The notes under the pieces: generated by a model
Told to the model about the DNA's origin: nothing
Seen by the model: the letters and a program-made list of their open reading frames with translations, nothing else
Database searches by the model: none
Translations under genes and position numbers: made by a program
Source: Hoyosella altamirensis
GTDB lineage: Bacteria > Actinomycetota > Actinomycetes > Mycobacteriales > Mycobacteriaceae
Reading direction: 5' to 3'
Assembly: GCF_014191505.1 (NCBI RefSeq)
Contig: NZ_JACHWS010000002.1
Span: 372,001-436,000, forward strand
Length of the DNA stretch: 64,000 bases
Shown here: positions 4,072 to 51,175 of the stretch, piece by piece
Position numbering within the stretch: position 1 is the first letter of the stretch
Layout of the letters: each line of letters begins with the position of its first letter

Positions 4072-4928
4072 CCCGCAACCCTCACCGTCGTCGAAGTACC
4101 CCAGATCGCGAGACTGAGGAAGAAGTCAAGAATCGCGATCGTCACAATTACTGTCCGCACTGAAGAGCCCACCGCGACTCCCACGCCTGCGGGACCGCCG
4201 CTCGCGGTATAGCCATAGAAGCAATGCACCATGATCAGCACGAAGGCAAAGACCAGCACCTTGCCGAACGACCATAAGACGTCTTCAGGCGGCAAGAACA
4301 GGTTGAAATAGTGGTCGTACGCGCCTGTCGACTGCCCATTGAGGTAGATATTGATCGCTCTGGAGGCAAAGTAGGCAGACAGCAATCCGACGACGTAGAG
4401 CGGGATAACGGCGATGAAGCCGGCCACGATGCGGGTCGTGACGAGGAACGGAAGGCTTGGAACGGCCATAACCTCGACCGCGTCGATCTCCTCTGAGATG
4501 CGCATAGCGCCGAGCTGCGCGGTGAAGCCGCAACCGACCGTCGACGATAGGGCAAGCGCGGCAATCACAGGCGCGATCTCGCGAGTGTTGATGTACGCGG
4601 ACAGCATGCCCGTGAGCACCGAAGCGCCGATCTGATCCAGTGACGCGAAGCCCTGCATACCGACGACGACGCCGGTGAACATCGACATCGCGATGATGAC
4701 ACCAAAGGTGCCCGCGATCACTGCCAGACCACCGGTTCCAAAGGTGACCTCTGCAAGCAGACGGCTTACTTCTTTCGGGTACTTCTTTATCGTCGCCGGA
4801 ATCCAGCCGATGGCCCGGGCATAGAAGGCCATCTGCTCGCCCAGCGAGTCCAGCGCGCCGACGGGTTTCCGGACGACTGTTTTCGCCCGGCGACTCATCA
4901 CGTCGAGTCGGCCTCTCGTAGCAGTCAT
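4068..4928 (-). CDS. MCE-associated permease YrbEB, operon A
   Basis: 286 residues from the ATG at 4928, which has a GAGG ribosome-binding site; an upstream in-frame ATG at 5021 would run into yrbEA and is rejected. Multi-spanning MlaE/YrbE permease with the family motif EEIDAVEVM at residues 147-155. It pairs with YrbEA to form the inner-membrane permease of an Mce lipid importer energised by MceG. Four bases separate it from yrbEA, and it overlaps mceA by four. Confidence 0.92.
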   Translation of the reverse strand: MTATRGRLDVMSRRAKTVVRKPVGALDSLGEQMAFYARAIGWIPATIKKYPKEVSRLLAEVTFGTGGLAVIAGTFGVIIAMSMFTGVVVGMQGFASLDQIGASVLTGMLSAYINTREIAPVIAALALSSTVGCGFTAQLGAMRISEEIDAVEVMAVPSLPFLVTTRIVAGFIAVIPLYVVGLLSAYFASRAINIYLNGQSTGAYDHYFNLFLPPEDVLWSFGKVLVFAFVLIMVHCFYGYTASGGPAGVGVAVGSSVRTVIVTIAILDFFLSLAIWGTSTTVRVAG

Positions 4929-4932
4929 AACC

Positions 4933-5742
4933 TCATGCCCCCCTTGGAGGAACGATCTGGATGTACACCGCGGTGAGGATGAAGTTTGCGAAGAACAGGA
5001 GGAGGAATGTGATAACCACACCCTCGTTCACCGCATCGCCTACACCCTTCGGACCGCCCTTCGGATGGAGACCCTTATAGGCCGCGACCACACCCGCGAT
5101 GACACCGAAGATCATGCCCTTGATCTCACCGATCCACAGGTCGGGAAGTTGCGCCAGCGCCGAGAAGGCCGCCACGTAAGTACCTGGCGTGCCGTCTTGG
5201 AGCATGACGTTGAAGACGTATCCGCCGGCCACACCGATAACTGCGACCAGGCCGTTGAGCAGGGCTGCGATGAGAATCATCGCGAGCACGCGAGGAACGA
5301 CGAGGCGCTGGACCGGGTTGATCCCGAGGACCTCCATCGCGTCGATTTCCTCGCGGATGGTGCGCGAACCGAGGTCCGCTGTCACTGCGGATCCCGCGGC
5401 GCCAGCGACAAGTAGCGCGGTAACCATGGGGCTGATCTGCTGCACCACGGCGAGCGAGCTGGCAGAACCGGTGAAGCCCTCGGCACCTAGCTGCCGGATA
5501 ATCGCACCCGTCATCATGGACACAACTGCGCCGAACGGGATCGCGACGAGTGCCGTGGGCAGGATCGTCACGCTGGCGATAAACCAAGCCTGCTGGATGA
5601 ACTCTCGCGTCTGGAACGGCTTCCTGAAAGTGTTCCGGACGACGTCTACTAGCAGCTGAAGGATGAGACCCGCCTGGGCGAGCATCCCTTCAGCTGCTTG
5701 GCCAACCTTGTTGTTTCGCAGCGCACCAGCCGAGATAGCCAT
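4933..5742 (-). CDS. MCE-associated permease YrbEA, operon A
   Basis: 269 residues. MlaE-family integral membrane protein with about five hydrophobic segments and the conserved cytoplasmic motif EEIDAMEVLG at 131-140, thought to contact the ATPase. Its ATG overlaps the stop of mceG copy 1 (TGATG), so ATPase and permease are translationally coupled here. Operon B's YrbEA has its motif at the same residues but is clearly divergent in sequence, so the operons are paralogous and only mceG is near-identical. Confidence 0.92.
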   Translation of the reverse strand: MAISAGALRNNKVGQAAEGMLAQAGLILQLLVDVVRNTFRKPFQTREFIQQAWFIASVTILPTALVAIPFGAVVSMMTGAIIRQLGAEGFTGSASSLAVVQQISPMVTALLVAGAAGSAVTADLGSRTIREEIDAMEVLGINPVQRLVVPRVLAMILIAALLNGLVAVIGVAGGYVFNVMLQDGTPGTYVAAFSALAQLPDLWIGEIKGMIFGVIAGVVAAYKGLHPKGGPKGVGDAVNEGVVITFLLLFFANFILTAVYIQIVPPRGA

Positions 5743-6749
5743 CAGTTGCTTCCTGCCTGCGTTGCTTCGTATTCGCGGAGTTCTTCAAGGATCGCGCGGC
5801 GGGCAGGCTCGGGCAGATCGTCCATCAGATGCCGGACCCGTTCCCGGCGGCGCAACTCACCCTGACGCACCGGCATCCCCGGCGTCGGACGGATCTGCGG
5901 AATCACACCACGCACATCCTCATCCGGGGACCCATCACTATGACCAGCCTCCGCCATCGCCGCCTCAGCCGCCATCGTCGCCTCGTCCTTCTCCTCCGAC
6001 ATCCCGATCGGACCCAGACGACGACCATTCAGGAACTGCCCCACCACCGGCTCATCACTAGTCAGCAGCACCTCACGCGGACCAAACATCACCAGATGCT
6101 TCCTAAACAGCATCCCCAAGTTATCCGGCACCGTCCGCGCCATATTGATGTTGTGCGTCACGATCAGCACCGTGCAGTCAATCTGCGAATTGATATCCAG
6201 AATCAGCTGCGACAAATACGCCGTCCGCACCGGATCCAAACCCGAATCCGGCTCATCACACAACAAAATCTCCGGATTCAGCACCAACGACCGCGCCAGC
6301 CCCGCACGCTTACGCATCCCACCCGAAATCTCACCCGGAAGCTTGTTCTCCGCACCCAGCAGACCCACAAGCTCCATCTTCTCCATCACGATCTGACGGA
6401 CCTCAGACTCCGACTTCTTCGTATGCTCCCGCAACGGAAACGCCACATTGTCATACAAATCCATCGACCCGAACAGCGCACCATCCTGAAACAGCACACC
6501 GAACATCTTCCGCACCTCATACAGCTCCCGCTGCGTGCACTGCAAAATATCCGTGCCATCAATCACGATCGATCCCCGCTCCGGGCGGATCAAACCAATC
6601 AGCGACTTCAAAAACACCGACTTACCCGTACCCGACGGGCCCAGCAGCGCACTCACCTCCCCAACAGGAAGCGTGAACGTGACATCAGACCAGATGTTCT
6701 GCGAACCAAAGGTCTTCGTCAGACCCTCGACAGCGACCTCGACTCCCAC
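5742..6749 (-). CDS. mceG: MceG (Mkl) ATP-binding protein, copy 1
   Basis: 335 residues from a GTG start preceded by GGGAGG. ABC ATPase with Walker A GPSGTGKS (37-44), Q-loop Gln88, signature SGGMRKR (142-148), Walker B ILLCDEP (161-167) and H-loop His199. An approximately 90-residue C-terminal extension (SEEKDEATMAAEA onward) is typical of actinobacterial MceG. It should energise Mce lipid import. It differs from copy 2 at one internal residue (Lys111, Arg in copy 2) and by two extra C-terminal residues (SN). Codons end mostly in G or T, unlike the C-rich third positions of the flanking mce genes. Confidence 0.95.
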   Translation of the reverse strand: MGVEVAVEGLTKTFGSQNIWSDVTFTLPVGEVSALLGPSGTGKSVFLKSLIGLIRPERGSIVIDGTDILQCTQRELYEVRKMFGVLFQDGALFGSMDLYDNVAFPLREHTKKSESEVRQIVMEKMELVGLLGAENKLPGEISGGMRKRAGLARSLVLNPEILLCDEPDSGLDPVRTAYLSQLILDINSQIDCTVLIVTHNINMARTVPDNLGMLFRKHLVMFGPREVLLTSDEPVVGQFLNGRRLGPIGMSEEKDEATMAAEAAMAEAGHSDGSPDEDVRGVIPQIRPTPGMPVRQGELRRRERVRHLMDDLPEPARRAILEELREYEATQAGSN

Positions 6750-6772
6750 GGAACCTCCCAGCTAGGCCCACA
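5752..6772. repeat. 1,021-bp direct repeat, copy 1 (mceG)
   Basis: Aligns base for base with 16325-17345 at a constant offset of 10,573 and with no indel. By eye, 5752-6286 (535 bp) is identical, and the remaining 486 bp holds about 14 mismatches. The repeat covers all of mceG except the last bases before the stop, plus the ribosome-binding site and about 20 bp of leader. Homology stops sharply on the left just before the stop codon. Confidence 0.95.
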
Positions 6773-6791
6773 TCCATACACAGTGTGGGTT

Positions 6792-6804
6792 GCGTCACTT
6801 TAAC
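6792..6804 (-). promoter_or_regulatory. Putative -10 region of mce operon A
   Basis: On the minus strand this reads GTTAAAGTGACGC. The equivalent place upstream of operon B (17365-17377) reads GTTACAGTGACGC, at exactly the same distance (43 bp) from the GTG start, although the surrounding sequence has diverged. TAAAGT/TACAGT fit an actinobacterial -10 hexamer (TANNNT). No convincing -35 was found. The overlapping GTGGGTT/AACCCAC repeat could be an operator. Confidence 0.4.
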
Positions 6805-6983
6805 CCACCAATGGGACGCGTATGACCCCGAACGTTACTTCAGGTTCGAATTCCGCTTTACACCGCCCCTCCCCTTGTGGGCTGCGGATTCGATAGACGA
6901 CGAGTTACCCCAGGGGTCGTGTCGGGTAACCCATTGGCGCACAATAACTTTCACTCTTGACGAACACGTATCTTCCAGACAAA

Positions 6984-7012
6984 TCCCGCGTGTACATACA
7001 TTTGACACGGGA
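6984..7012. repeat. Imperfect inverted repeat between mce operons
   Basis: Arms TCCCGCGTGT and GACACGGGA pair with a one-base bulge around an A/T-rich centre. It lies about 77-105 bp downstream of the stop of operon B's last gene and about 235 bp upstream of operon A. It could be a regulator-binding site or part of a weak terminator. Confidence 0.3.
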
Positions 7013-7088
7013 TGGTTCACGCTTTGCGAGAGGTCGCTTCGCCCGCGCTCTCACAGGTAAATCTCAGCGATACCTCAGGTTCTGTTCG

Positions 7089-7715
7089 TTACATCGGCTG
7101 CACGTCGGATAGCAGCCAGCGATCTTCATCTCGCTCCAGCGAGACCACGAGGCGGCTGGCTTCGATCCCGCCTTCTGGCCTCAGGACGTTGGTCACTTCC
7201 TGGTTGAGAAAAACCAGAACCGTCGCCTGGTTCTGATCGACCGACTGCGCGGCAGCATGGATCGCGCTGCCCCGCGAAACGCCGCGGCTTTCCGTAACAG
7301 CGTCCCGCAACTCATTTGCGACGGTCTCATACTCCGCAGCGAATTCGGGGGTAGATACCGAAATTACGTCCGAAAAGCTCTGCTCGAGGTCGGTGTAGGT
7401 GTAGCTGCCCATGAGTTCGGCATAGGTTGAAGCGTCGCTGACAGCTTGAATCCGCAGGGTCTCTGCCTGTGCAAGTGCCCGCTCGCCACGCGAAGTGTCC
7501 CAATATAAGTAGCCCAGAACGCCGCAAAGTGCAATCAAGCCTGCGAAAGCAAGCACCAGAAGGGGTTTAGCCCTGCCGCGCGGTCCCGGCTTCTCCTCCT
7601 GAGCCTGGCCGGTTGGCGGCGACCCCACTGGCCCCGTTCCCGACTCGTCGACCGATGACACCTCGACTGTCTCCTGTTCGTCGTGCAACTCGAATGTTCG
7701 CGTGTCCGGCGTCAC
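7089..7715 (-). CDS. Mce-associated membrane protein, operon B
   Basis: 208 residues: an acidic, proline-rich cytoplasmic N-terminus (about 1-45), one membrane segment (about 50-70), and an extracytoplasmic domain with the layout of Mce-associated proteins, which often follow mceF. The C-terminus ends in WLLSDVQPM, a motif-like ending common in such proteins. Start overlaps the mceF stop by four bases. Such proteins are thought to stabilise or assist Mce complexes. Only one is present here, whereas many mce operons carry two or more. Confidence 0.75.
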   Translation of the reverse strand: MTPDTRTFELHDEQETVEVSSVDESGTGPVGSPPTGQAQEEKPGPRGRAKPLLVLAFAGLIALCGVLGYLYWDTSRGERALAQAETLRIQAVSDASTYAELMGSYTYTDLEQSFSDVISVSTPEFAAEYETVANELRDAVTESRGVSRGSAIHAAAQSVDQNQATVLVFLNQEVTNVLRPEGGIEASRLVVSLERDEDRWLLSDVQPM

Positions 7716-9016
7716 CGGGCGCCACCTGCACCCGGCAGTCCTGCATCACGAGCAGCCGCGTCTGCCGCGCCGAGAGCGGCGCGGGTGGCAGGGGCCAGGA
7801 TCAGCGGATCGCTGACAATGGGTGGACCGGTCTGAATTCCTGGTGACGTGTACTTCACCAGCCCGAGCCCGTCTGGCCGAGGGGCCGTCACCGCACCGCG
7901 TTGCGCGAGACCGTTTCCGGGCGGACAGAATACGCCGCGGTTTGGTTCGCGCGGGCTTTGGTCACCGACAACGCGCCTCGGTGTGTCGTAGTAGCACACC
8001 GGCCCTTGCGTCACGACAAGGTGGAAGTCAGCGATGCTTCCCCGGCTGATGCCCGCCGCAGCGTCAAGACCTCGGGGGAAATCGTCGACGAGCGCCCGAA
8101 GGGCAGCGTCACGGTTACCGAGGATGGGCGCGATATCGGCGAGGCCAGCCATCATGCTTTCCGCGTTGTCTTGATTGCTGACGAGAATGTCGGAAATCCG
8201 CCTCATCCCTCCCGGACCGGTATCGATCAGGCTCTCCAAATCGGGTGTGCTCTCGACCAACTGGCGCGTCCACGTGCGAAACGTGGTGAATGACGACGGT
8301 AGCGCGTCAGACGCATCCGCTATCAGCGCCATCGTTGCGGGCCCTTCGAGCCCTAACCATTCGACCGTCTCTGAATGCTTGTCGAATACATCCGCCAGAA
8401 GGCCTACGTTGTCGATGATGTCGCCAATATCCTCGCCGCGGCCCGTGAACGTATCTCCCAGCGTTGTGAGGAGTGCGCTGACAGAATCAACATCCACGGT
8501 TTCAATCACATCATTGAGCGCGACCAGGACTTCTCGGAAGTCCGCGCGCTGCAGAGCGGGATCAGCAACGAGCACTGCGCCGTCTTCCAGGTAAACGCCA
8601 GGCTGTGCATCCTCCCCGGGACGCAACTCGAGGTTGACGAGACCTGCAACATTCAACGTGGTGGACACAGGTGTTACGGAGTTGGAGACCTGTACGCCGG
8701 GGTCCAGCTGGAAGTCGACTTGGATCGGCATCTCGACAGGCCCTTGATCGGTGTCGACTGAACGTGTTTCCGACGGCGGGACCGGCCGTATTTCCCGGAT
8801 CTCGCCGACGACGACGCCCTGATATGTCACCACAGTTCCAGGCCCGAGACCGCGCCCATTATCGAAGTACGCCGTCCCAGAAACCGGCCGTTCCCCAAGG
8901 CCAATTGTGGAAAGACTCAGAAACTGAGCTCCCAGCGCGTACCGGGTACCGGCAGGAATGATGAATAGGGCCAGAGCGATAAAAAGGGCCAACTGAACCT
9001 TCGTGCTGCGCCTCAT
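7712..9016 (-). CDS. MCE family protein MceF, operon B
   Basis: 434 residues. Anchor at about 8-30, MCE domain (VVTYQGVVVGEI near 62-73), helical region, then a region with two Cys (CYYDTPRR and VFCPPGNG) and an alanine-rich end. It is the last of six MCE proteins, so MceF by position. Four-base overlaps with mceE and with the mce-associated gene. Confidence 0.88.
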   Translation of the reverse strand: MRRSTKVQLALFIALALFIIPAGTRYALGAQFLSLSTIGLGERPVSGTAYFDNGRGLGPGTVVTYQGVVVGEIREIRPVPPSETRSVDTDQGPVEMPIQVDFQLDPGVQVSNSVTPVSTTLNVAGLVNLELRPGEDAQPGVYLEDGAVLVADPALQRADFREVLVALNDVIETVDVDSVSALLTTLGDTFTGRGEDIGDIIDNVGLLADVFDKHSETVEWLGLEGPATMALIADASDALPSSFTTFRTWTRQLVESTPDLESLIDTGPGGMRRISDILVSNQDNAESMMAGLADIAPILGNRDAALRALVDDFPRGLDAAAGISRGSIADFHLVVTQGPVCYYDTPRRVVGDQSPREPNRGVFCPPGNGLAQRGAVTAPRPDGLGLVKYTSPGIQTGPPIVSDPLILAPATRAALGAADAAARDAGLPGAGGAR

Positions 9017-10038
9017 CGGGTGCCCCCTGTTTGTGCGACGCGTTCACCGATCAGCAGATATGAAAGCGCATCTGGAATGTTCAGAGTCCCGTCGAAGGCT
9101 AGATAATCACCACGCTGGGCATTCGCAACCCCGCTCAGGAAGTCCGTCATGGGAAGCAGTACGCTGCGAATCTCGACACTCCGCAGGGCCTCGAGCAAAT
9201 CAGCGAGTTCCGCTGGCAGTGCAAGTAAGTCGTCCTCAGACGCCGTCATAATCACGTCGAGCTCACCGGACAGCCCGCCGACACTTGCCATGAGGTCTGC
9301 GATTTGCGGCCACTGATCGTTCAGCTGATCAAACACAGGATTCGCGGCGTCGAGCCCACGCTCGAACGCATCTCGCTGCGCCGCCAACTGTTCAGACGCC
9401 CCAGCTGCCGCGGTGAGGGCGCGATCGATATTGCCAGACTGAGCGCTCAGCAACTGTGCAGTGCTACGCAGCGAAGTGACGAGCCTGTTGATTTCCTCGC
9501 CGCGATCGCCAACTGCGAGTTCCATTTCGTTGGCAATGACTTCGAGACTGCCCACTCCGCCTTCGCTGAGTACCAGAGAGAGGCTTGCGAGAGCATTCTC
9601 GAGGTCGGGACCTCTGAAGGTCTGTTCCTCGGTAATCCGGTCGCCCGGCTGAAACATCTCAGATGAAGGCTCATCAGGCAGCCGAACACGCAAATACGGG
9701 TTACCGAGGGTGTTTGGCAATTCAACGGTGATTGTCGCGTCCCGCGGAAGTTCAGCGTCGCTGTCCAGACTTACGGTCGCTACCGCGATTCGACGGCCAT
9801 CTGGAGCCACGTCGGTCCGCAGGTCTGCGACTCGGCCGAGTAGCCGCTGACCTAGGCGCACCTCACTACCGACCATGACCAGGTCTGCAGTTTCCAGCTC
9901 GACCTCAATCGGGTAGGTAGCTCGGCCTTCCACCAGATCGAAGGAAATGTTCTGCATTCCCATAGAGCATCCCGTCCCGGCAATCGCGATCGGAATGGCG
10001 ATGAGCGCGGAGAGGACCCCGTTCTTTATGAGCCTCAT
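9013..10038 (-). CDS. MCE family lipoprotein MceE, operon B
   Basis: 341 residues. The N-terminus is a lipoprotein-type signal with Cys24 in AGTGCS, the hallmark of the MceE (LprK-like) subunit; the -3 position is not the usual Leu, so the lipobox is slightly atypical. MCE domain follows (GSEVRLGQRLLGRV near 57-70), then helices and the short C-terminal YLLIGERV stretch. Start overlaps the mceD stop by one base. Confidence 0.88.
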   Translation of the reverse strand: MRLIKNGVLSALIAIPIAIAGTGCSMGMQNISFDLVEGRATYPIEVELETADLVMVGSEVRLGQRLLGRVADLRTDVAPDGRRIAVATVSLDSDAELPRDATITVELPNTLGNPYLRVRLPDEPSSEMFQPGDRITEEQTFRGPDLENALASLSLVLSEGGVGSLEVIANEMELAVGDRGEEINRLVTSLRSTAQLLSAQSGNIDRALTAAAGASEQLAAQRDAFERGLDAANPVFDQLNDQWPQIADLMASVGGLSGELDVIMTASEDDLLALPAELADLLEALRSVEIRSVLLPMTDFLSGVANAQRGDYLAFDGTLNIPDALSYLLIGERVAQTGGTR

Positions 10039-11156
10039 CAGCGTCCTCCCCTCACTGAGTTCTGCAGGATCGCACCGAGACCAAACGGGTCAGACGCGCT
10101 CGGCGGGATGGATATCGGATTCGTCAGCCCCGCTCCTGTGCAGAGTGCCGCGCCAAGGTCTCCGCACAGCGGTGCGAGACCCGGGAGTTGCTGGAGGTCT
10201 GTGGAGATGTTGAGGCGGATTCGCATGTGGTTATCGATGATTGCGCGATCGACGTTCTGCCCGATAAGTGGCAACACGTCGAGGATTTCCGCGAGGTCAG
10301 ACGGACTGTTGGCGAGCGTATTGGCGAGCACGTCAGTCGAGGCGATGATGTCGCTCAACTCGCCTCCGCGTTCGGTCACCACCCTGTCCGCCTCATCGAA
10401 CATCACCCGGATCCGGCTGATCATCGACCCAAGATCGATGTCTTGACGGCCGGCCTCTGCCGCCAGCGCGGTGAGCGATGTCGTGAACTCACGGATCTCA
10501 GCATCACGCGAGGAGATCATCCTCGCGATGTTGCCGAAGACTTCGAGGAGCTCGTCGATCTCGTCCGCGTTGTCTCCGAGCACTCTCGTCGCTCCCGCGA
10601 ATTGCTCGATGGCGCGGTTGGCTTCCGGGCCAATCCCTTCGAAAGCCTGCCCCATCCTCTCGACCGTTTCCCGAACGCCACCCAGTTCCTCTTGGTCACT
10701 GAGGCGTTCCGCAAGATCCTTGGCAGAGGTCAGAAGCATGTCGTAGTCGATGGGCACGTCGGTTCGCTCGAGCGGGATGACACCCCCGTCTGGGAATTCA
10801 CCAACCCGTTCACCCCTCGGTGGCAGCACGATCTCGACGTATCGGTCCGCCACCAAGGTTCGGTTCGTAATGAATGCACCAATATTTTCCGGGAGGTCCA
10901 CGTCCGGATTGACCTTCATCGTGACTAGCACACCACGCTCCGTGGGTTCGAGCTCAGCGATGTTACCCACATCGACACCGAGTAGCCGCACTTCGTTGTC
11001 GACATAAAGACCCGTCGCGACCTGGAACTCGGCCACAATTGTCTTGCTCGCGTCCCTGAGGAACACCACCCAGACTGTCACCGCAACCAGCACGACTATC
11101 AGCACGATCGCGATGATCCTGCCGATTTTCCCACTTACGCTCGCTGTATCGGTCAT
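10038..11156 (-). CDS. MCE family protein MceD, operon B
   Basis: 372 residues. Membrane anchor (about 12-31), MCE domain with NEVRLLGVDVGNI near 55-67, helical region, and a C-terminal segment with two Cys (LCGDLGAALC). It directly abuts the mceC stop and overlaps mceE by one base. Compared with the partial protein at the left edge it shares the anchor, the MCE domain and the TDVP/TPVE-type segment after it, as expected for MceD paralogues. Confidence 0.88.
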   Translation of the reverse strand: MTDTASVSGKIGRIIAIVLIVVLVAVTVWVVFLRDASKTIVAEFQVATGLYVDNEVRLLGVDVGNIAELEPTERGVLVTMKVNPDVDLPENIGAFITNRTLVADRYVEIVLPPRGERVGEFPDGGVIPLERTDVPIDYDMLLTSAKDLAERLSDQEELGGVRETVERMGQAFEGIGPEANRAIEQFAGATRVLGDNADEIDELLEVFGNIARMISSRDAEIREFTTSLTALAAEAGRQDIDLGSMISRIRVMFDEADRVVTERGGELSDIIASTDVLANTLANSPSDLAEILDVLPLIGQNVDRAIIDNHMRIRLNISTDLQQLPGLAPLCGDLGAALCTGAGLTNPISIPPSASDPFGLGAILQNSVRGGR

Positions 11157-12218
11157 TTACCGGCACCCCTCCATCACGCCGAGCAAGCAGAGCATGTTGT
11201 CCGGGAAGACGGCAGCTGGAGCGTTGACGTCGAGCCAGGGTCCGTTGCCGCTGGCATCAGCAACATGGCGGAACGCGGGGGCAACCTCGGCGAGATTTCG
11301 CTCGATCAGATCTGATTCGGCCGAGAGCATCGCGGTAACGTCCTGCAGACCCACCATCAGGCGGTCCCATTCACCGGATTCTGAATCAAGCAGTTCAGTC
11401 ATCCGTACGGAAACTGTCTCGAGGTCCCGTATGAGCCCGCTAATCAACTGCGCTCGCACACCGAGCGTGCCGAAGACGATCGCACCCTGGTCGAAGAGTC
11501 GCTCCAGTGTGTCTTGCTGAGCATCGACAATTTCGGCGAGCTCTCGCCCAGTTTCGAGCAGTCGCTGGATCTGGTCGCCGTTGTCATTGATGATCGCGGC
11601 AGCGTCCGCGAGTGCGGTCACCGCTTCGTCAGCGAGCGCCCGGTTCGGAATTGAGTCGTATGCGAGGTCAGTGAGGTACGCAATCTGCTCGTAGTCGATG
11701 GCCTCCCGGTCCGGCTCGTCGGTACGCGTCACGTCGTATGCGGCGCGGGCGATCTCGTCGAAGTGGAAGGGGACCGCAGCGCGCTCCAGTGGAATGACAC
11801 CCCCCTCGAGGGATCCCATGCCCTGCGGACGTATGTCCAGGTAGTAGGCGCCAAGGATGGTCCGTAGCTTGACTTCCGCCTCGGTCTGGTCGCCGAGTTC
11901 TTGTGATCGGTCTACGCGGAAGCCCGCGACAACCTCATCCCCCTCAATCTGGACGCTCTCAACTCGACCAGCGGGGAGACCCGCCACGTAGACGGGGTCA
12001 CCGGCTGACAGCCCGCCCGCCGAGGGCAAGACAACGCTGTATCCCGCGGTCCGCAAGTGGTAAACAGCCGTGGGAAACACGGCCGCAAATGCGAGCACCG
12101 CGACGACTATCACCGTGGCAACCGCGCCGATTAGCCCAGGTCGAGTCACATATACCTTGGAGATGCCTGAACCAACGAGTTGCTGGTTGAGATCTCTAAT
12201 CCAGCGGATCATCGGCAC
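11157..12218 (-). CDS. MCE family protein MceC, operon B
   Basis: 353 residues. A longer cytoplasmic N-terminus (about 1-24) precedes the anchor (about 29-50); MCE domain with GDPVYVAGLPAGRV near 73-86; helical region; C-terminal GNGPWLDVNAP motif typical of MceC. Its start lies ten bases inside the end of mceB. Part of the predicted operon B lipid channel. Confidence 0.87.
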   Translation of the reverse strand: MPMIRWIRDLNQQLVGSGISKVYVTRPGLIGAVATVIVVAVLAFAAVFPTAVYHLRTAGYSVVLPSAGGLSAGDPVYVAGLPAGRVESVQIEGDEVVAGFRVDRSQELGDQTEAEVKLRTILGAYYLDIRPQGMGSLEGGVIPLERAAVPFHFDEIARAAYDVTRTDEPDREAIDYEQIAYLTDLAYDSIPNRALADEAVTALADAAAIINDNGDQIQRLLETGRELAEIVDAQQDTLERLFDQGAIVFGTLGVRAQLISGLIRDLETVSVRMTELLDSESGEWDRLMVGLQDVTAMLSAESDLIERNLAEVAPAFRHVADASGNGPWLDVNAPAAVFPDNMLCLLGVMEGCR

Positions 12219-13231
12219 ACCTCCGAATGTGTTCCCCCGATGAGGTTGAACAGGTCTGCCTCGAAGTCATCGACCTGGACGCTCAGGGTGCAGATATAAA
12301 GCGTGAGCCAGGACCCGTAGTCCCCGTAGTGGTTGACAGCTTCGCCAGTCCGCAGCAGCGATTCCAGCAGTCCTCTGTACTCTTCAGTGTTTTGGCTCCA
12401 CTCCTCACTCACATCGATCCCCGCAGCGACTGAGCGGCGCAGATCAGGCATCGTGGTGTCGAGCAGCGTGGCGAACTTATCCATTGTTGATCCGCCCTGG
12501 TCGAGGAGCGCGATGATGTCGTCGTTGCGCGACGCCAGGTTTTCCGTGAGCGCAGTGAGTCCTTCGATTGCGGCTTCGACATCGTCCCGCCGCTCGATTA
12601 CAACGTCGAAAGCGTCGGGAAGAGTATTGGCTATCCGTTCGATTTCGGCTTGGCGGGCGAGCATCACATTCGCCACGTCGAGCATCCCGATCAGCATGGC
12701 TTCGAATACATCCGTATTGCCTTCAAGCGCTCCGATCAGCGATGCCGACATTTGGTTGAGTCTCGGGGGATCCAGCAGCCGGAAGACGGGGCGGAAGCCG
12801 TTGAACAGCTCCGTTACGTCCGTCGGTGGTTTACCCAGAGTCGTGAGTCTGTCGCCTCGTTCAAGGGCTGCAGCCCCGCCTGGGTCGATCAGCCCCAGGT
12901 AGCGAACGCCGAGCATGTCAGCGAACTTGACTTCCGCCCGGGCATTCTCGGTGAGCTCGACGTCGCGTTCGATCGCGAAACTCACCACCGCACGAACTGA
13001 GCCGTCGGACTGGCGTTCCCAGCCAGTGTCGCCGACCTTACCCACGCGCACACCCGCCAAAGTGACGTCGTCTCCACGCTTGAGGCTCGTCGCGTCGTCG
13101 AACTCCGCCGTATAGGTGGCCGAGCGTCCATCGACCGGAGGACTCAGTGTCTGCCACACGCTCACCGAGGTGAACAAAACGAGCACAAGAAAGACAACGA
13201 GGCCCGCCAGTGCACCTTTACTCAGCTTCAT
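12209..13231 (-). CDS. MCE family protein MceB, operon B
   Basis: 340 residues. Anchor about 7-28, MCE domain with GDDVTLAGVRVGKV near 53-66, helical region and a C-terminal YGSWLTLYIC motif shared with operon A's MceB. Four-base overlap with mceA; ten-base overlap with mceC. Confidence 0.88.
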   Translation of the reverse strand: MKLSKGALAGLVVFLVLVLFTSVSVWQTLSPPVDGRSATYTAEFDDATSLKRGDDVTLAGVRVGKVGDTGWERQSDGSVRAVVSFAIERDVELTENARAEVKFADMLGVRYLGLIDPGGAAALERGDRLTTLGKPPTDVTELFNGFRPVFRLLDPPRLNQMSASLIGALEGNTDVFEAMLIGMLDVANVMLARQAEIERIANTLPDAFDVVIERRDDVEAAIEGLTALTENLASRNDDIIALLDQGGSTMDKFATLLDTTMPDLRRSVAAGIDVSEEWSQNTEEYRGLLESLLRTGEAVNHYGDYGSWLTLYICTLSVQVDDFEADLFNLIGGTHSEVCR

Positions 13232-14577
13232 GAAACCTCCACCGCCGTCCCGCGGACGATCGGCCCGAGCAGCATTGCAGTGGCTGCACTGGGCCGGTCA
13301 GAAACACTGGGCCGGTCAGATCCGGGCTGCCCGGCGGCAGGCGCCGCCGCACCGCGGAGGCCACGCATAAGTTCCCTTTCGAGGACAGCAAGCGGATCCG
13401 CCTGCATTTCCGTCATTACTCCGTCAGCGGGCGCCCCCGCGGGAAACAGGCCCCGCAGGCCAGGGACCAGGTCTTCCGGTGAAAGTTCAGTCACCGTGCG
13501 CGCTTCAGCGGGACCGCATGTCGGCGACGAAAGACCGGGGTACTGCGGACAGTCAGCGGCCGAATAGGGAAGCGGATTCTCGAACGTCGCGAGTGCCTGA
13601 ATGTTGAGTCTGCCCGTTCGAAATACGGGTCCCAATGCCGTCCCGGCGTTCCGCAAGCCTCTTAGTGTGCCGTCAATTCCCTGGCCTGTGTTGAGCGCGG
13701 TAACTGCGACCGTTCCCCCGTCCAAGAAGACGACGGTGTCGTTGGCAATCGCTCCGAAGAAGTTCTCGGCGTCGCGGCCGAAGGCTGCGCCTGCGATGAG
13801 TACCTCGCGGATCCCCTCACTACGGCGAGTCAGGAGATCTGCAAGATCCGTCGAGTTTTCCATCGTCGCAACAATGTCGGGCAGCGAGACGTCGATATTT
13901 TCGAGCGTTCTTCGCAGATCTGGGATGACCTCGCCCTCGATGAGCGGCGAGAGGGACTCGAGGAGATCCGCGCCCTGGCCGATGAGAAGTCCCAGATCTT
14001 CGCCCCGGCCTTCGACACCGATCCGCAGTTCCCGCAGACCTTCGAGCGAGCCCTCGATATTCAGGTCATACACCGCACGCATGACCTTCTCGTAGACGTC
14101 GTAAAGTTCGCGCGCCTCGGGTCCGGTGTCCAGGATCAGCGTGTCCCCCGCAGTGAGGTTCACTGTCGACCGATCGGTGAGTTCCACGCCGTACGGCGCG
14201 ACAAGGTGAACCTCGTTGTCGCCGAAGACCGTCCTCGGAACGATCCTGGCTAGCGCGTCATTCGGTATTTCTTCGAGCACTCCCGGCGCGACCTGCATCT
14301 CTAACCGAGAAATCTCGCGGCCTGCCTCATCGATCACCCCGACCTGAATGTTGCTGACCCGCCCCACGATGACACCCTCGTAGCGCACCGCATTGTCCGA
14401 GCCCAGGAGCAAGCCGGATTCGCGTGGCCTTTCCTCACCTGCCACCTCAACTGCGGCTGGCACGTCCACATAGACCTTTGGTGACCGGTCCAGCGCACCC
14501 GCGCCGCGGGCAATCAACAGTGCGGAGATCACGAAGAGCAAGACAGCGATGATGACACCGCGAATTGATTTGATCAT
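13228..14577 (-). CDS. MCE family protein MceA, operon B
   Basis: 449 residues, nearly the same length as operon A's MceA but divergent. Anchor about 7-28; MCE domain (AVRYEGVIVGRV near 62-73); helical region; a long tail containing three Cys pairs' worth of loop residues (CPQYPGL, CGPAEA) and a Pro/Ser-rich stretch; ends LLGPIVRGTAVEVS. First MCE gene after the permeases, with a four-base overlap to yrbEB. Confidence 0.87.
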   Translation of the reverse strand: MIKSIRGVIIAVLLFVISALLIARGAGALDRSPKVYVDVPAAVEVAGEERPRESGLLLGSDNAVRYEGVIVGRVSNIQVGVIDEAGREISRLEMQVAPGVLEEIPNDALARIVPRTVFGDNEVHLVAPYGVELTDRSTVNLTAGDTLILDTGPEARELYDVYEKVMRAVYDLNIEGSLEGLRELRIGVEGRGEDLGLLIGQGADLLESLSPLIEGEVIPDLRRTLENIDVSLPDIVATMENSTDLADLLTRRSEGIREVLIAGAAFGRDAENFFGAIANDTVVFLDGGTVAVTALNTGQGIDGTLRGLRNAGTALGPVFRTGRLNIQALATFENPLPYSAADCPQYPGLSSPTCGPAEARTVTELSPEDLVPGLRGLFPAGAPADGVMTEMQADPLAVLERELMRGLRGAAAPAAGQPGSDRPSVSDRPSAATAMLLGPIVRGTAVEVS

Positions 14578-15440
14578 TCGAGTCCCATCCCTGGAATCGT
14601 CGGCGTCAGACCGTATAGACCAAAGATCAAGACCATGGCTGCAATGGCTACGGTGAGGATCGTTGTCCTGACGGCCGTGCCTGCCGCACGACCCACGCCC
14701 TCCGGCCCGCCCGACGCGTTATATCCATATGAGCAAGCGATGACAGCGATGATGACGGAGAAGATCACCGTCATCAGGATCGAATAGCCGAAGGCCTGAG
14801 GCGTTATCGATTGCCGGAAGTAATAGTCATAGGTGCCGGATGATTCCCCGAGCATCCCTACCACGACAAATCGGGAAGCGAGATACGCGCCGAGCAGTCC
14901 TACCATGTAGACGGGGGTGATCACGATAAGCATCGCGATCAGCCGTACCGTCGCCAGGAAGGTCACCGAAGGGACGCCGAGGGTGTCGAGCGCATCGATT
15001 TCTTCCGAGATTCGCATAGAACCCAGCTGAGCCGTGAAACCTGTCCCCACTTTTGCCGCGATCGCCAACGCAGCGATCAACGGTGCAAGGGCTTGGGTGT
15101 TCGCAATCGAAGCTGCGAGACCCGAGAGTGCCGTGAAGCCGAGCAGGCCTAGCGCACGGTGGATCTCGATCGACACCATGACTGCAGCGACGATGGCCAT
15201 ACCCGCGACGACACCGATCGTGCCCCCGCCAGAAAGCAGCGAGGCTTTTCCGAAGCTGATGTTGCCAACCTCGCGAAGCACGTGGGTTCGGTATCGCGTG
15301 ACCGCCATGGGAATGCCCGCAAACATTTTCACACCGAACATGACGTGACCATCAAGCGCCCCAAAGCTGCTCTTCAGCCTCCCAGCAGTCCCTGACGTGA
15401 CATCCTTCAGCCTCTGCGTGGCTGTCTGCGACAAGATCAT
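14574..15440 (-). CDS. MCE-associated permease YrbEB, operon B
   Basis: 288 residues. MlaE-family permease with EEIDALDTLG at 147-156, the same position as in operon A's YrbEB. Overlaps the yrbEA stop by four bases and mceA by four. Expected to form the inner-membrane translocator together with YrbEA and an MceG dimer. Confidence 0.92.
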   Translation of the reverse strand: MILSQTATQRLKDVTSGTAGRLKSSFGALDGHVMFGVKMFAGIPMAVTRYRTHVLREVGNISFGKASLLSGGGTIGVVAGMAIVAAVMVSIEIHRALGLLGFTALSGLAASIANTQALAPLIAALAIAAKVGTGFTAQLGSMRISEEIDALDTLGVPSVTFLATVRLIAMLIVITPVYMVGLLGAYLASRFVVVGMLGESSGTYDYYFRQSITPQAFGYSILMTVIFSVIIAVIACSYGYNASGGPEGVGRAAGTAVRTTILTVAIAAMVLIFGLYGLTPTIPGMGLE

Positions 15441-16252
15441 ATGTAATCTCCGACTGCTGGCACGACCACGATGTACATCTGGGTCAGAACGACGTTGATC
15501 ACGAAGACAGCGATGAACATCATGACGACGGCGTCGTTAACCGAGTTCGCCACTCCGGCCGATCCACCACGGGTCTGTGTTCCCTTATATGCAGCGACAA
15601 TTGAGCACGCAACACCGAAACAGAACGACTTAAATAGCGCCATCACAAAGTCGGACGTTCGCCCGTATGCCTGCAGTGTCAGCAAGAATCCGCCTTGCGA
15701 TTCACCAACTCCCACGACTTGGTAGGTGTACGTGAAAAAGATTCCGGCGAACGACACGATCGTGCACATCGATAGGGCCACGAAGACCAGGGCAAAGACT
15801 CGCGGGACGACGACGCGCTCCACCACGTCAACGCTCATCACCTGCAACGCGTCGATTTCCTCGCGGATCGTGCGAGCGCCGAGGTCAGAACAGATAGCGG
15901 CGCCTCCCACACCCGCGGCGATCAGCGCCGTTACGAGCGCAGCTGCCTGCCCGATAATTACGAACGAGACGACCGCACCCGAATACTGCGCCGCGCCTAC
16001 CCGGCCAGCCAGTCCGCCCATCATTACGGCAATAACCACGCCGATGGGAAGCATGAGCAGCAACGAGGGCCAGAAGCAGACCTTCACAAGAAAGGTTGTC
16101 TGGCTTACGAATTCGGCTAGCGGGAAACGCCGCTTGAGAATTGCCGCGAGGCCAGTCAGGAATGTCTGGGCCGCGAAAGTGACGAGCCCGCCTATCTCAT
16201 TAATTGCATCGGGGATGAGCCCCTTTTTGTTCGATTCGACTTGAACAGTCAA
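15437..16252 (-). CDS. MCE-associated permease YrbEA, operon B
   Basis: 271 residues from a TTG start at 16252, chosen because GAGGCAAGG lies just upstream and family homology begins soon after. MlaE-family protein with EEIDALQVMS at 131-140. Unlike operon A, a 68-bp gap separates it from mceG copy 2, so the ATPase and permease are not translationally coupled here. Confidence 0.9.
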   Translation of the reverse strand: MTVQVESNKKGLIPDAINEIGGLVTFAAQTFLTGLAAILKRRFPLAEFVSQTTFLVKVCFWPSLLLMLPIGVVIAVMMGGLAGRVGAAQYSGAVVSFVIIGQAAALVTALIAAGVGGAAICSDLGARTIREEIDALQVMSVDVVERVVVPRVFALVFVALSMCTIVSFAGIFFTYTYQVVGVGESQGGFLLTLQAYGRTSDFVMALFKSFCFGVACSIVAAYKGTQTRGGSAGVANSVNDAVVMMFIAVFVINVVLTQMYIVVVPAVGDYI

Positions 16253-16320
16253 CGCCTTGCCTCATCTTCGAGTGTCTGGAGACGTCCAGTGAATTGCGGG
16301 CCCGTGAGTTACGGGCGCGA

Positions 16321-17322
16321 CTACCCTGCCTGCGTTGCTTCGTATTCGCGGAGTTCTTCAAGGATCGCGCGGCGGGCAGGCTCGGGCAGATCGTCCATCA
16401 GATGCCGGACCCGTTCCCGGCGGCGCAACTCACCCTGACGCACCGGCATCCCCGGCGTCGGACGGATCTGCGGAATCACACCACGCACATCCTCATCCGG
16501 GGACCCATCACTATGACCAGCCTCCGCCATCGCCGCCTCAGCCGCCATCGTCGCCTCGTCCTTCTCCTCCGACATCCCGATCGGACCCAGACGACGACCA
16601 TTCAGGAACTGCCCCACCACCGGCTCATCACTAGTCAGCAGCACCTCACGCGGACCAAACATCACCAGATGCTTCCTAAACAGCATCCCCAAGTTATCCG
16701 GCACCGTCCGCGCCATATTGATGTTGTGCGTCACGATCAGCACCGTGCAGTCAATCTGCGAATTGATATCCAGAATCAGCTGCGACAAATACGCCGTCCG
16801 CACCGGATCCAAACCCGAATCCGGCTCATCACACAACAAAATCTCCGGATTCAGCACCAGCGACCGCGCCAGACCCGCACGCTTACGCATCCCGCCCGAA
16901 ATCTCACCCGGAAGCTTGTTCTCCGCCCCCAGCAGACCCACAAGCTCCATCTTCTCCATCACAATCTGACGGACCTCAGACTCCGACTTGCGCGTATGCT
17001 CCCGCAACGGAAACGCCACATTGTCATACAAATCCATCGACCCGAACAGCGCACCATCCTGAAACAGCACACCGAACATCTTCCGCACCTCATACAGCTC
17101 CCGCTGCGTGCACTGCAAAATATCAGTGCCATCAATCACGATCGAACCCCGCTCCGGGCGGATCAAACCAATCAGCGACTTCAGAAACACCGACTTACCC
17201 GTACCCGACGGGCCCAGCAGCGCACTCACCTCCCCAACCGGAAGCGTGAACGTGACATCAGACCAGATGTTCTGCGAACCAAAGGTCTTCGTCAGACCCT
17301 CGACAGCGACCTCGACACCCAC
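16321..17322 (-). CDS. mceG: MceG (Mkl) ATP-binding protein, copy 2
   Basis: 333 residues, GTG start with GGGAGG upstream. Identical to copy 1 except Arg111 (Lys in copy 1) and a C-terminus two residues shorter, ending in TAG. All ABC motifs are intact, so both copies should be functional. In M. tuberculosis the single mkl gene lies near rplL; this copy lies downstream of rplL here, so it is probably in the ancestral position and copy 1 is the duplicate (inference). It heads the complete operon B. Confidence 0.95.
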   Translation of the reverse strand: MGVEVAVEGLTKTFGSQNIWSDVTFTLPVGEVSALLGPSGTGKSVFLKSLIGLIRPERGSIVIDGTDILQCTQRELYEVRKMFGVLFQDGALFGSMDLYDNVAFPLREHTRKSESEVRQIVMEKMELVGLLGAENKLPGEISGGMRKRAGLARSLVLNPEILLCDEPDSGLDPVRTAYLSQLILDINSQIDCTVLIVTHNINMARTVPDNLGMLFRKHLVMFGPREVLLTSDEPVVGQFLNGRRLGPIGMSEEKDEATMAAEAAMAEAGHSDGSPDEDVRGVIPQIRPTPGMPVRQGELRRRERVRHLMDDLPEPARRAILEELREYEATQAG

Positions 17323-17345
17323 TGAACCTCCCAGCTAGGCCCACA
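16325..17345. repeat. 1,021-bp direct repeat, copy 2 (mceG)
   Basis: Partner of 5752-6772 in the same orientation. The mismatches are confined to the half nearest the gene start; the 535 bp nearest the gene end are identical by eye. Operon B and one mceG copy therefore lie within a 10,573-bp unit flanked by direct repeats. Confidence 0.95.
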
Positions 17346-17364
17346 CCGCTTCTTGATGTGGTCC

Positions 17365-17377
17365 GCGTCACTGTAAC
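17365..17377 (-). promoter_or_regulatory. Putative -10 region of mce operon B
   Basis: Minus strand GTTACAGTGACGC, conserved at 12 of 13 positions with 6792-6804 and at the same distance from the mceG start. Lies about 20 bp outside the long repeat, in sequence that otherwise differs between the copies, which suggests selection or a remnant of a longer duplication. Confidence 0.4.
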
Positions 17378-17797: not shown

Positions 17798-18187
17798 TTA
17801 CTTGACGGAAACCTTCGCGCCAGCAGCCTCGAGCTTGTCCTTGGCAGCGTCAGCCTGGTCCTTGGCGACGTGCTCGAGGATGGCCTTCGGAGCGCTCTCG
17901 ACGAGTTCCTTAGCTTCCTTCAGTCCGAGGCTCGGGATGATCTCACGGACAACCTTGATGACGCCGATCTTCTTTTCACCAGCAGCCTCGAGAACGACGT
18001 CGAACTCGTCCTTCTCTTCAACAGCCTCGGCTGCACCAGCGGCCGGTGCACCAGCGGCAGCAACAGCGACGGGAGCGGCAGCAGTAACCTCGAAGGTGTC
18101 TTCGAAGACCTTGACGAACTCCGAGAGCTCGAGAAGGGTCATTTCCTTGAAAGCGTCGATCAGCTCGTCGGTGGTGAGCTTCGCCAT
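17798..18187 (-). CDS. rplL: 50S ribosomal protein L7/L12
   Basis: 129 residues. N-terminal dimerisation region ([20 protein letters not shown]), an alanine-rich hinge (about 37-58), and the conserved C-terminal domain ([22 protein letters not shown]) that recruits translation factors. Follows rplJ after a 94-bp spacer. Length is normal for the family. Confidence 0.97.
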
Positions 18188-18281: not shown

Positions 18282-18827
18282 TCAGCTTTCCGCTGGGGCG
18301 CTCTCTGAGCCTTCGGCACCCTTCTTTTCCTGCAGTGCAGCAGCCAGACGCGCAACCTGCGAAGCAGGTGCGTTGAACAGGCCCGCAGCCTTCGCCAAGT
18401 TGCCCTTCATCGCGCCAGCGAGCTTGGCCAACAAGACCTCACGGGACTCAAGGTCCGCGATCTTGTCAACTTCGTCCACCGACAGCGGACGGCCATCCAT
18501 GTAGCCGCCCTTGATGACGAGGGCTTTGTTGTCCTTCGAGAACTTCTTGAGAGCCTTCGCGGCGTCAACGGGCTCACCCGTGATGAACGCAATCGCGGTC
18601 GGCCCCGAGAAAAGCTCGTCGAGTCCCTCAACTCCGGCATCGCGTGCCGCAATCTTCACGAGGGTGTTCTTGGCGACGGAGTACGAGGACCCCGCGCCGA
18701 GTGCCCGGCGCAGTTCGGTCAGGCCGGCAACACTGAGGCCACGGTATTCAGTAACGACGGTTGCGGTTGAGCTCTTGAACCGCTCGCTGATCTCCGCTAC
18801 CGCGGCGACCTTTTCAGCCTTTGCCAT
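18282..18827 (-). CDS. rplJ: 50S ribosomal protein L10
   Basis: 181 residues from the ATG at 18827, which has GAGGAGAGGAGG upstream; an in-frame extension to 18920 is rejected because the family begins at MAKAEKV. Contains the L10 core ([29 protein letters not shown]) and a C-terminal helix that binds L7/L12 dimers. Its leader carries a terminator-like hairpin, so the rplJL unit may be autoregulated or attenuated. Confidence 0.97.
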
Positions 18828-19237
18828 GCTTCGCCTCCTCTCCTCACTCAGCCGAATTCGCTGACCAACCAGAGGGCTCACATGCATACAAGGCCTGCGC
18901 ACAAGCCCTAGATACAGCAAAACCCCGGCGCAGAAAGCCGGGGCAAGTTGATATACGTACGTGGCGCATTAATGCGGCACATACCTTAGCCTCGTCCTCC
19001 TGCGTGGGCCGCCGGATTACTCCGGTCCTTCGCTCGCATACACAGGAGCGTATGCGATGACCAACGGTCTTCGGTGAACTTTACATTTGGGTAGATCCGC
19101 CCACGCGAGCGCGAGCAGACCAGACATAAGTCCGAAAGAAGGGTAGCGCGCCATGGCCAGAAACCCAAATCGGGTGGATTCCCGCGATCAGGCAGACTAG
19201 TGGTACCCAGTGTCCGCGTAGTTCTTAAGGAGGCGCG
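18828..19237. other. 410-bp divergent leader/promoter region (rplJ and hydrolase)
   Basis: No gene seen. On the minus strand it carries the promoter and leader of rplJL, including the hairpin at 18919-18943 and a CGCATAC/GTATGCG inverted repeat (19035-19056). On the plus strand it carries the promoter of the alpha/beta hydrolase, whose GTG start has AAGGAGG five bases upstream. I could not pick a convincing -35/-10 pair for either direction. Confidence 0.55.
18919..18943 (-). promoter_or_regulatory. Terminator-like hairpin in the rplJ leader (L10 leader candidate)
   Basis: Minus strand: seven-pair G/C stem CCCCGGC/GCCGGGG with a seven-base loop, followed directly by TTTT. It lies 92-116 nt upstream of the rplJ start and inside the only leader available. 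L10 leader structures that regulate rplJL are known in several bacterial phyla; the stem plus T-run suggests transcription attenuation here. Confidence 0.5.
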
Positions 19238-51101: not shown

Positions 51102-51175
51102 GCGAAACGCGTGTGAGCACCAGCCACCGTCGCGGGTCACCCCGGCGCTCATGGCGGTGCTCACACGCGTTTCGC
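51102..51175. terminator. Perfect 20-bp inverted repeat between convergent genes
   Basis: Arms 51102-51121 and 51156-51175 (GCGAAACGCGTGTGAGCACC and its complement), perfect over 20 bp with a 34-nt centre; four more pairs (GCCA/TGGC) form after one bulged base. It fills the space between two converging genes, so a bidirectional terminator is the simplest reading. There is no T-run. Confidence 0.75.

What the first reader, a model, noticed from the sequence alone, without database searches (positions are those of the whole stretch)
5752..17345. Complete mce operon enclosed by two near-identical mceG direct repeats
mceG occurs twice in the same orientation as a 1,021-bp repeat (about 14 mismatches by eye), 10,573 bp apart, each heading its own yrbE-mce operon. 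In mycobacteria a single unlinked mkl serves all mce operons. Here recombination between the repeats could delete or amplify the whole operon B, leaving one mceG in front of operon A under operon B's promoter. The result would be a lipid importer whose copy number can change in one step.
Basis: partly seen in the sequence, partly recalled or inferred. Interest (0 to 1): 0.78.

Follow-up and report, generated by a model that had tools for sequence, protein, structure and literature searches.

The report
Twin mceG genes kept identical
Two lipid-importer gene clusters lie side by side in an actinobacterium, each starting with its own copy of the same motor gene, and comparison with relatives suggests that the copies are kept almost identical by gene conversion, with no sign among the species compared of the proposed loss or multiplication of a cluster.

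Summary
The repeat is real: 1,021 bp, 14 mismatches, same orientation, offset 10,573 bp. It is nearly exactly the mceG gene plus 23 bp upstream. The enclosed operon B is complete (2 yrbE, 6 mce, one further ORF). The genome has a third near-identical mceG away from any mce operon.

The layout is old. All 7 genomes examined from the window's genus (3) and the genus of Lolliginicoccus suaedae (4) keep both operons; none shows the proposed deletion product. Neighbouring permeases are orthologous by position, yet the mceG coding sequences coalesce within each genus: 1 of 1,011 bases differs within L. suaedae, 188-190 of about 1,000 from the window's copies A and B. That is concerted evolution, most simply by gene conversion.

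The rplJL-mceG-operon locus of rhodococci corresponds to operon A, not B. So operon B, a different mce type, was probably inserted, with promoter plus mceG duplicated. One congeneric draft genome lacks mceG-B but keeps operon B, implying that MceG made elsewhere serves it.

Verdict: observation confirmed; one-step copy-number switch not supported at species level; a homogenised shared ATPase is the better reading.

The parts
669..5742 (-). Operon A, part in the window: yrbEA (4933-5742), yrbEB (4068-5021), MCE genes 2725-4071, 1661-2728, 669-1664; three more MCE genes lie beyond the window start
   Evidence: Pfam MlaE/MlaD/Mce4_CUP1; whole-genome MlaD hits; its yrbEA is orthologous to that of the rplL-linked mce operon of rhodococci
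5742..6749 (-). mceG copy A, ATPase of an MCE lipid importer, 335 aa
   Evidence: ABC_tran; repeat copy 1 = 5752-6772
6784..6803 (-). Promoter-like element of mceG-A (TTAAAGTGACGCAACCCACA), of a kind conserved at rplL-linked mceG genes
   Evidence: a pattern for its core is present at 16 of 16 rplL-site copies and 2 of 20 other copies of multi-copy genomes; promoter role inferred
7089..7715 (-). Last ORF of operon B, no Pfam or NCBIfam match; Mas-like by position only
   Evidence: conserved at this place in both genera
7712..14577 (-). Six MCE genes of operon B
   Evidence: Pfam MlaD in all six
14574..16252 (-). yrbEB and yrbEA permeases of operon B, each with an EExDA motif (EEIDA)
   Evidence: Pfam MlaE; motif
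16321..17322 (-). mceG copy B, 333 aa
   Evidence: ABC_tran; repeat copy 2 = 16325-17345
17357..17376 (-). Promoter-like element of mceG-B (TTACAGTGACGCGGACCACA)
   Evidence: promoter role inferred
17798..18187 (-). rplL-position ORF (129 aa; L7/L12 by position and relatives); anchor of the rplJ-rplL-mceG locus
   Evidence: position next to rplJ and conserved in relatives; name recalled, not run against a family library
18282..18920 (-). rplJ (ribosomal protein L10), anchor of the locus
   Evidence: Pfam and NCBIfam L10

Best explanation
The locus is a stable compound of two different MCE lipid-importer operons that share one kind of ATPase. (1) Ancestral state: rplJ-rplL-promoter-mceG-operon A, as in rhodococci (inferred from gene order in relatives). 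(2) In the common ancestor of the window's genus (probably Hoyosella, recalled) and of Lolliginicoccus, a second mce operon of another type (B) came to lie between rplL-mceG and operon A, and promoter plus mceG was duplicated so that each operon has its own (inferred; the molecular route is not shown). (3) Since then yrbE and mce genes have diverged by position, while the mceG coding sequences have been repeatedly overwritten by one another: gene conversion between the direct repeats and, less clearly, with the third, unlinked copy (pattern shown; RecA-type mechanism inferred). (4) Likely reason: one MceG must dock on the EExDA loops of all YrbE pairs, so interchangeable copies are favoured or at least tolerated, and each operon gets its own co-expressed supply (inference). 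The near-identity is thus a product of homogenisation, not a device for removing or multiplying operon B.
For: Coding sequence: 1/1,011 differences within L. suaedae and 0/194 at fourfold sites, against 189-190/1,005 and 66/162 to the window's copy A. Neighbouring yrbEA: A versus B only 32-34% aa within each of four genomes compared, but 84-97% (A-A) and 92-98% (B-B) between G000 and G063 or G001; same gene order in both genera. Tree of the coding sequences groups A with B by species (G0A+G0B 0.936, G2A+G2B 0.910, G63A+G63B 0.988). Upstream 150 bp: in the tree the four A sequences split from the four B sequences with support 0.931 and the three B of the window's genus group with 0.997 (see the caveat under evidence against). 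Window pair: longest run of shared variable sites 28 of 47, reached in 0 of 5,000 permutations. The K/R codon 111 is exchanged between A and B in the two close species. Three drafts of genus g21 hold operon B as a separate contig of 9,453-9,652 bp, and G001 contigs end inside mceG, as expected if the copies are near-identical there too. G001 lacks mceG-B from about codon 8 to past the stop, with both flanks and operon B kept. All four YrbE of operons A and B have EEIDA.
Against: The upstream sequence does not place L. suaedae copy B firmly: pairwise it scores higher against the window's A (34) than B (17), and the near-identical stretch in that genome reaches 57 bp upstream, over the promoter-like element (1,079 aligned columns, 99.35%). 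So the age of the two positions there rests on gene order and the permeases. The permutation test is not significant for G2A/G2B (p 0.15) and weak for the third copy (G0A/G0C p 0.007, G2B/G2C p 0.03, uncorrected). In the window's genus within-species pairs (14 and 9 differences) are not far below between-species pairs (19-20), so conversion there is not constant. In other multi-copy genomes only 5 of 16 have a pair with fourfold difference of 0.07 or less. The route by which B arrived is unobserved. Direction and rate of conversion were not measured. Functional sharing of MceG is inferred, and the loss in G001 rests on one draft.
Confidence: 0.8

Rival explanations
1. One reading: the repeats are a recombination module that deletes or amplifies operon B, so importer copy number changes in one step.
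For: 1,021 bp of 98.6% identity in direct orientation is ample for homologous recombination (general knowledge). Drafts with operon B as an isolated contig cannot exclude circles or tandem copies.
Against: Both operons are present in 7 of 7 genomes examined from two genera; the three resolved ones have one B unit. None of the 7 has rplL-mceG-operon A. The one loss seen took mceG-B, not operon B. Permeases of A and B are orthologous by position across the genera.
Confidence: 0.07
2. Recent independent duplication: in each lineage mceG was newly copied into place, without gene conversion between standing copies.
For: mceG does disperse: a third copy at one site in G000 and G002, apparently at another in G001; extra copies in rhodococci. 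The upstream sequence of L. suaedae copy B is not clearly B-like.
Against: The same two positions, between the same neighbours and in the same orientation, would have to be hit again in each genus; within the window's genus A and B upstream sequences are distinct and orthologous in three species. The window pair is a mosaic, diverged in the 5' half and nearly identical in the 3' half. Replacement of a standing copy by a new one is gene conversion in effect.
Confidence: 0.08
3. Strong purifying selection alone keeps the copies alike.
For: MceG is conserved (66-77% aa among the listed order-level matches from other genera).
Against: Fourfold-degenerate sites are also alike: 8/183 within the window pair and 0/194 in L. 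suaedae, against 66/162 between the genera.
Confidence: 0.02
4. Assembly artefact.
For: Repeats of this length break assemblies; four related drafts do break there.
Against: Same layout in G002 (4.74-Mb contig) and G063; upstream and downstream sequences are specific to each copy; 14 differences.
Confidence: 0.01

Closest known systems
mkl/mceG-linked mce operon of non-mycobacterial actinomycetes (Casali & Riley 2007, PMC1810536; abstract, outline and passages seen)
   Same: mceG immediately upstream of yrbEA-yrbEB-six mce genes; here also at the rplJL locus
   [quoted passage not shown] here two adjacent operons of different type each have one, plus a third unlinked copy
tufA/tufB concerted evolution by gene conversion (PMC6053082, passages and section 6 seen; PMC5485169, abstract and outline only)
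   Different: A transporter ATPase heading direct-repeat operons; mceG is not among the 26 genes in that survey's tables
Shared single MceG of M. tuberculosis (PMC9947336; passages seen)
   Same: One kind of ATPase serves several Mce transporters
   Different: Sharing here would be through three near-identical genes, two of them in cis

Membership tests
Actinobacterial MCE (mce) ABC lipid-importer operon | Two yrbE (MlaE) plus six mce (MlaD) genes in a row | tested here: met
   Operon B: 2 MlaE and 6 MlaD ORFs 7712-16252; operon A: 2 MlaE ORFs and 6 MlaD hits partly outside the window
Actinobacterial MCE (mce) ABC lipid-importer operon | Mkl/MceG-type ATPase | tested here: met
   ABC_tran with best NCBIfam model MlaF, below its cut-off; 71-78% aa to the other 78 named loci, most of them at rplL
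Actinobacterial MCE (mce) ABC lipid-importer operon | EExDA loop in the YrbE permeases | tested here: met
   EEIDA in all four YrbE of A and B
Actinobacterial MCE (mce) ABC lipid-importer operon | Imports a lipid | not testable with these tools
   No transport data; substrate unknown
Concerted evolution by gene conversion | Paralogues within a genome closer than orthologues by position, at synonymous sites, at syntenic places | tested here: met
   Clear between the two genera; slight between G000 and G002
Concerted evolution by gene conversion | Mosaic tracts within the gene | tested here: met
   Window pair: run of 28 of 47 variable sites, 0 of 5,000 permutations; not significant for the G002 pair (p 0.15)
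Concerted evolution by gene conversion | Non-reciprocal transfer observed | not testable with these tools
   Needs strains or a marker experiment
Repeat-flanked amplifiable or deletable module | Copy-number variants of the enclosed unit among relatives | tested here: not met
   7 of 7 genomes keep both operons; 3 of 3 resolved have one B unit; within-species variation not testable
Repeat-flanked amplifiable or deletable module | Flanking direct repeats long enough for homologous recombination | tested here: met
   1,021 bp, 98.6%

The most novel reading that the evidence does not exclude
MceG behaves as a shared hub subunit whose dispersed genes are kept as effectively one allele by recurrent gene conversion in several lineages of the family, while operons, promoters and sometimes the C-terminal tail stay position-specific. 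In G122 and G165 the first 250 aligned codons differ by 0-1 aa and 1-2 fourfold sites between the two copies compared, but 22-28 of about 100 tail residues differ. This would make the gene a natural exchange point at which whole mce operons can be joined into, or cut out of, the rplL-mceG locus, operon B being one such arrival.
Probability: 0.4. Interest if true: 0.62.

Novelty: new variant of a known kind. Interest (0 to 1): 0.48.

Why it matters
How one ATPase is shared among several MCE transporters is a live question in the biology of mycolic-acid bacteria. Here evolution seems to have run the experiment: an operon that acquired its own mceG, copies held nearly identical, and one species that then lost that copy and kept the operon. 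It predicts that MceG copies are interchangeable and that cis supply is optional. It also warns that mceG copies collapse in draft assemblies: G047, G079 and G001 show no mceG hit and G022 only a part, with contigs ending at or in the gene, and G175 (rhodococcus-like) has only two contig-end fragments.

Tried and rejected
Operon deletion or amplification among relatives: looked for in 7 genomes of two genera, none seen. Assembly artefact: rejected. Purifying selection alone: rejected at fourfold sites. A cassette 'operon of B type plus 3' mceG', as found at a separate locus in G122, G134 and G165, was considered as the incoming unit. It is not favoured, because those 3' copies lack the rplL-site element that both A and B have here. 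The third copy: same surroundings in G000 and G002 (main aligned blocks 89-95%); in G001 the extra mceG end lies beside another mce operon and showed no aligned block over 150 bp with the G000 site, so it appears to be elsewhere. The 180 bp after the mceG-B stub in G001 matched the mceG coding sequence no better than shuffled sequence (score reached by 17 of 200 shuffles for G0A, 190 of 200 for G63B); its last 52 bp matched the normal mceG-yrbE junction (0 of 200).

Literature: no paper in the held library has both 'mceG' and 'gene conversion'. Searches were seen as listings with the starts of abstracts; apart from the four papers opened in part (PMC1810536, PMC9947336, PMC6053082, PMC5485169) nothing was read. 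The organism's name was not established by a call; Hoyosella is recalled from genome size, G+C and kinship to Lolliginicoccus. Structure prediction was not used.

In the yrbEB comparison the A rows of G001, G022, G047, G063 and G079 came out as 29-aa fragments (frame extended wrongly); I dropped them and use yrbEA only, save for yrbEB of operon B in G001.
Full report
OBSERVATION. The two stretches are ungapped direct repeats of 1,021 bp with 14 mismatches. They coincide with two mceG ORFs: each has 23 bp upstream, including a GGGAGG that looks like a ribosome-binding site, and lacks the last 10 or 4 bases of the gene. Operon B between them is complete: two MlaE-type permeases, six MlaD-type proteins and a further ORF. 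The window genome (G000, 11 contigs, 4.76 Mb) has 24 MlaD hits in four clusters of six, two on C2 (A and B) and two on C3, eight yrbE genes, and three near-identical mceG genes. The third lies about 50 kb from the nearest C3 operon.

RELATIVES. Of the 3 held genomes of the genus (the window's own included), G002 has the same three copies and layout; G001 has no mceG hit. Of 201 family genomes, 177 have mceG at E <= 1e-90; counting by eye in that listing, 29 have more than one. Their places are given together; same-strand pairs within 20 kb on one contig occur only in G000, G002 and G063. Among the 249 order-level genomes no further such pair is listed, but that list is cut. It has rplJ-rplL-mceG-operon B-mceG-operon A. 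G022, G047 and G079 are of the same genus (g21) by the tool's label.

FRAGMENTED ASSEMBLIES. In G022, G047 and G079 both operons are present, but A lies at a contig start and B is a whole contig of 9,566, 9,453 and 9,652 bp. G001 contigs C34 and C7 end inside the 3' part of mceG and C3 ends in the 5' part. Assemblies break this way at near-identical copies, so near-identity is likely in these four too; it is shown directly in 3 of the 7. Circles or tandem arrays cannot be excluded in the four.

CONCERTED EVOLUTION. Within L. suaedae the copies differ at 1 of 1,011 bases; from the window's copies A and B by 188-190 and from its third copy by 184-185 of about 1,000, with fourfold differences near 0.40. 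Within G000 A-B is 14/999, within G002 9/999; A-A and B-B between G000 and G002 are both 20, crosswise 19; the third copies are 21-30 from all others of the genus. The permeases next door differ between A and B at two thirds of residues in the four genomes compared, but are orthologous by position. The 150 bp upstream separate A from B clearly in the three species of the window's genus. L. suaedae A joins the A group (0.931), but L. suaedae B is not clearly B-like: pairwise it scores 34 to the window's A and 17 to its B. In that genome the near-identical stretch reaches 57 bp upstream and covers the promoter-like element; in G002 it is 1,021 bp with 8 mismatches. So the two positions are older than the split of the genera by gene order and permeases, and only the coding sequence (with a little upstream) is young: gene conversion or an equivalent replacement. 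The window pair is a mosaic (0 of 5,000 permutations); the G002 pair is not significant (p 0.15).

WHERE OPERON B CAME FROM. In 13 of 79 named loci mceG has rplL upstream and a yrbE downstream (L047 is the L. suaedae one); 59 have rplL but no yrbE in the stretch held, all mycobacterial by title; 1 has yrbE downstream without rplL, 3 have yrbE upstream, 3 neither. In the other 12, and in 15 of 16 rplL-site loci from multi-copy genomes (the sixteenth, L161, has no yrbE in reach), the downstream yrbEA matches operon A's at 69-81% and B's at 38-42%. Operon B's yrbEA has its nearest relative outside this locus on C3 of the same genome (64%), then 48-55% matches in other genera. So B looks like the newcomer. 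Both mceG-A and mceG-B have a promoter-like element whose core pattern occurs at 16 of 16 rplL-site copies but 2 of 20 others, and in 0.85% of random window stretches. The duplicated unit was therefore probably promoter plus mceG. I wrote the pattern, so it is not an independent motif; with a reach of 150 bp it occurs in 68 of 78 named loci.

LOSS OF ONE mceG. In G001 the rplL-yrbEA(B) gap holds the upstream element, the first 21 bases of mceG, about 128 bp of unplaced DNA and 52 bp of the normal mceG-yrbE junction; operon B's permeases are open and 95-98% alike to the window's. Operon B thus persists without its own mceG. mceG-A is present but split by an assembly gap, and another mceG 3' end lies beside a different mce operon. 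The inference is that MceG from elsewhere energises operon B. This rests on one draft genome.

WIDER PATTERN. I fetched 36 loci of 16 further multi-copy genomes (of 26; the other 10 were only located). Five of 16 (G046, G122, G130, G165, G194) have a pair with fourfold difference of 0.07 or less; 11 do not. In G122 and G165 the rplL-site copy and a copy behind another mce operon differ at 3/181 and 3/177 fourfold sites, against 25/185 and 28/180 between the same sites of the two genomes; G134 does not show this (20/174 within, 16/188 and 16/184 to G165). In G122 and G165 the first 250 aligned codons are homogenised while the tail differs between the copies at 28/106 and 22/97 residues; between the genomes the tails differ at 5/107 (rplL site) and 13/97 (second site).

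MECHANISM AND KNOWN SYSTEMS. Best reading: gene conversion among copies of a shared ATPase, as for tuf. Steps shown: layout, positional orthology of the neighbours, coding-sequence coalescence, mosaic in the window pair, absence of mceG-B in G001. Steps inferred: recombination machinery, interchangeability of MceG, selection for identity, arrival of B. [quoted passage not shown] the concerted-evolution survey PMC6053082 (section 6) does not list mceG in its tables; no held paper contains both mceG and gene conversion.

VERDICT. The proposed copy-number switch has no support in the species compared, where the layout is fixed; recombinants within a culture remain possible and untested. The finding is a new variant of a known kind: mce operons with linked mceG, combined with tuf-like concerted evolution.

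Noticed in passing
G000 C3:1036025-1037026 (L015:9026-10030): Third near-identical mceG, not in an mce operon and without the promoter-like element; same surroundings in G002, apparently not in G001.
   Followed up: partly
L178, L179, L180 (G134, G165, G122): B-type mce operons at a separate locus with an mceG about 1.7 kb behind the last matched operon ORF, without the rplL-site element.
   Followed up: partly
G175 C168 and C175, bases 2-250: Two contig ends that stop inside mceG with the same match range, identity and nearly the same score, suggesting collapsed near-identical mceG copies.
   Followed up: no
window 19238-20182 (+): Alpha/beta hydrolase whose best NCBIfam models are macrolide-esterase families, far below their cut-offs, lying between the ribosomal protein genes for L10 and L1.
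   Followed up: no
window 51102-51175: Inverted repeat of 74 bp with near-perfect outer arms (81% over 78 aligned columns as a whole).
   Followed up: no
G002 C3:1213463-1214942: G002 has a fifth pair of yrbE genes (10 hits against 8 in G000).
   Followed up: no
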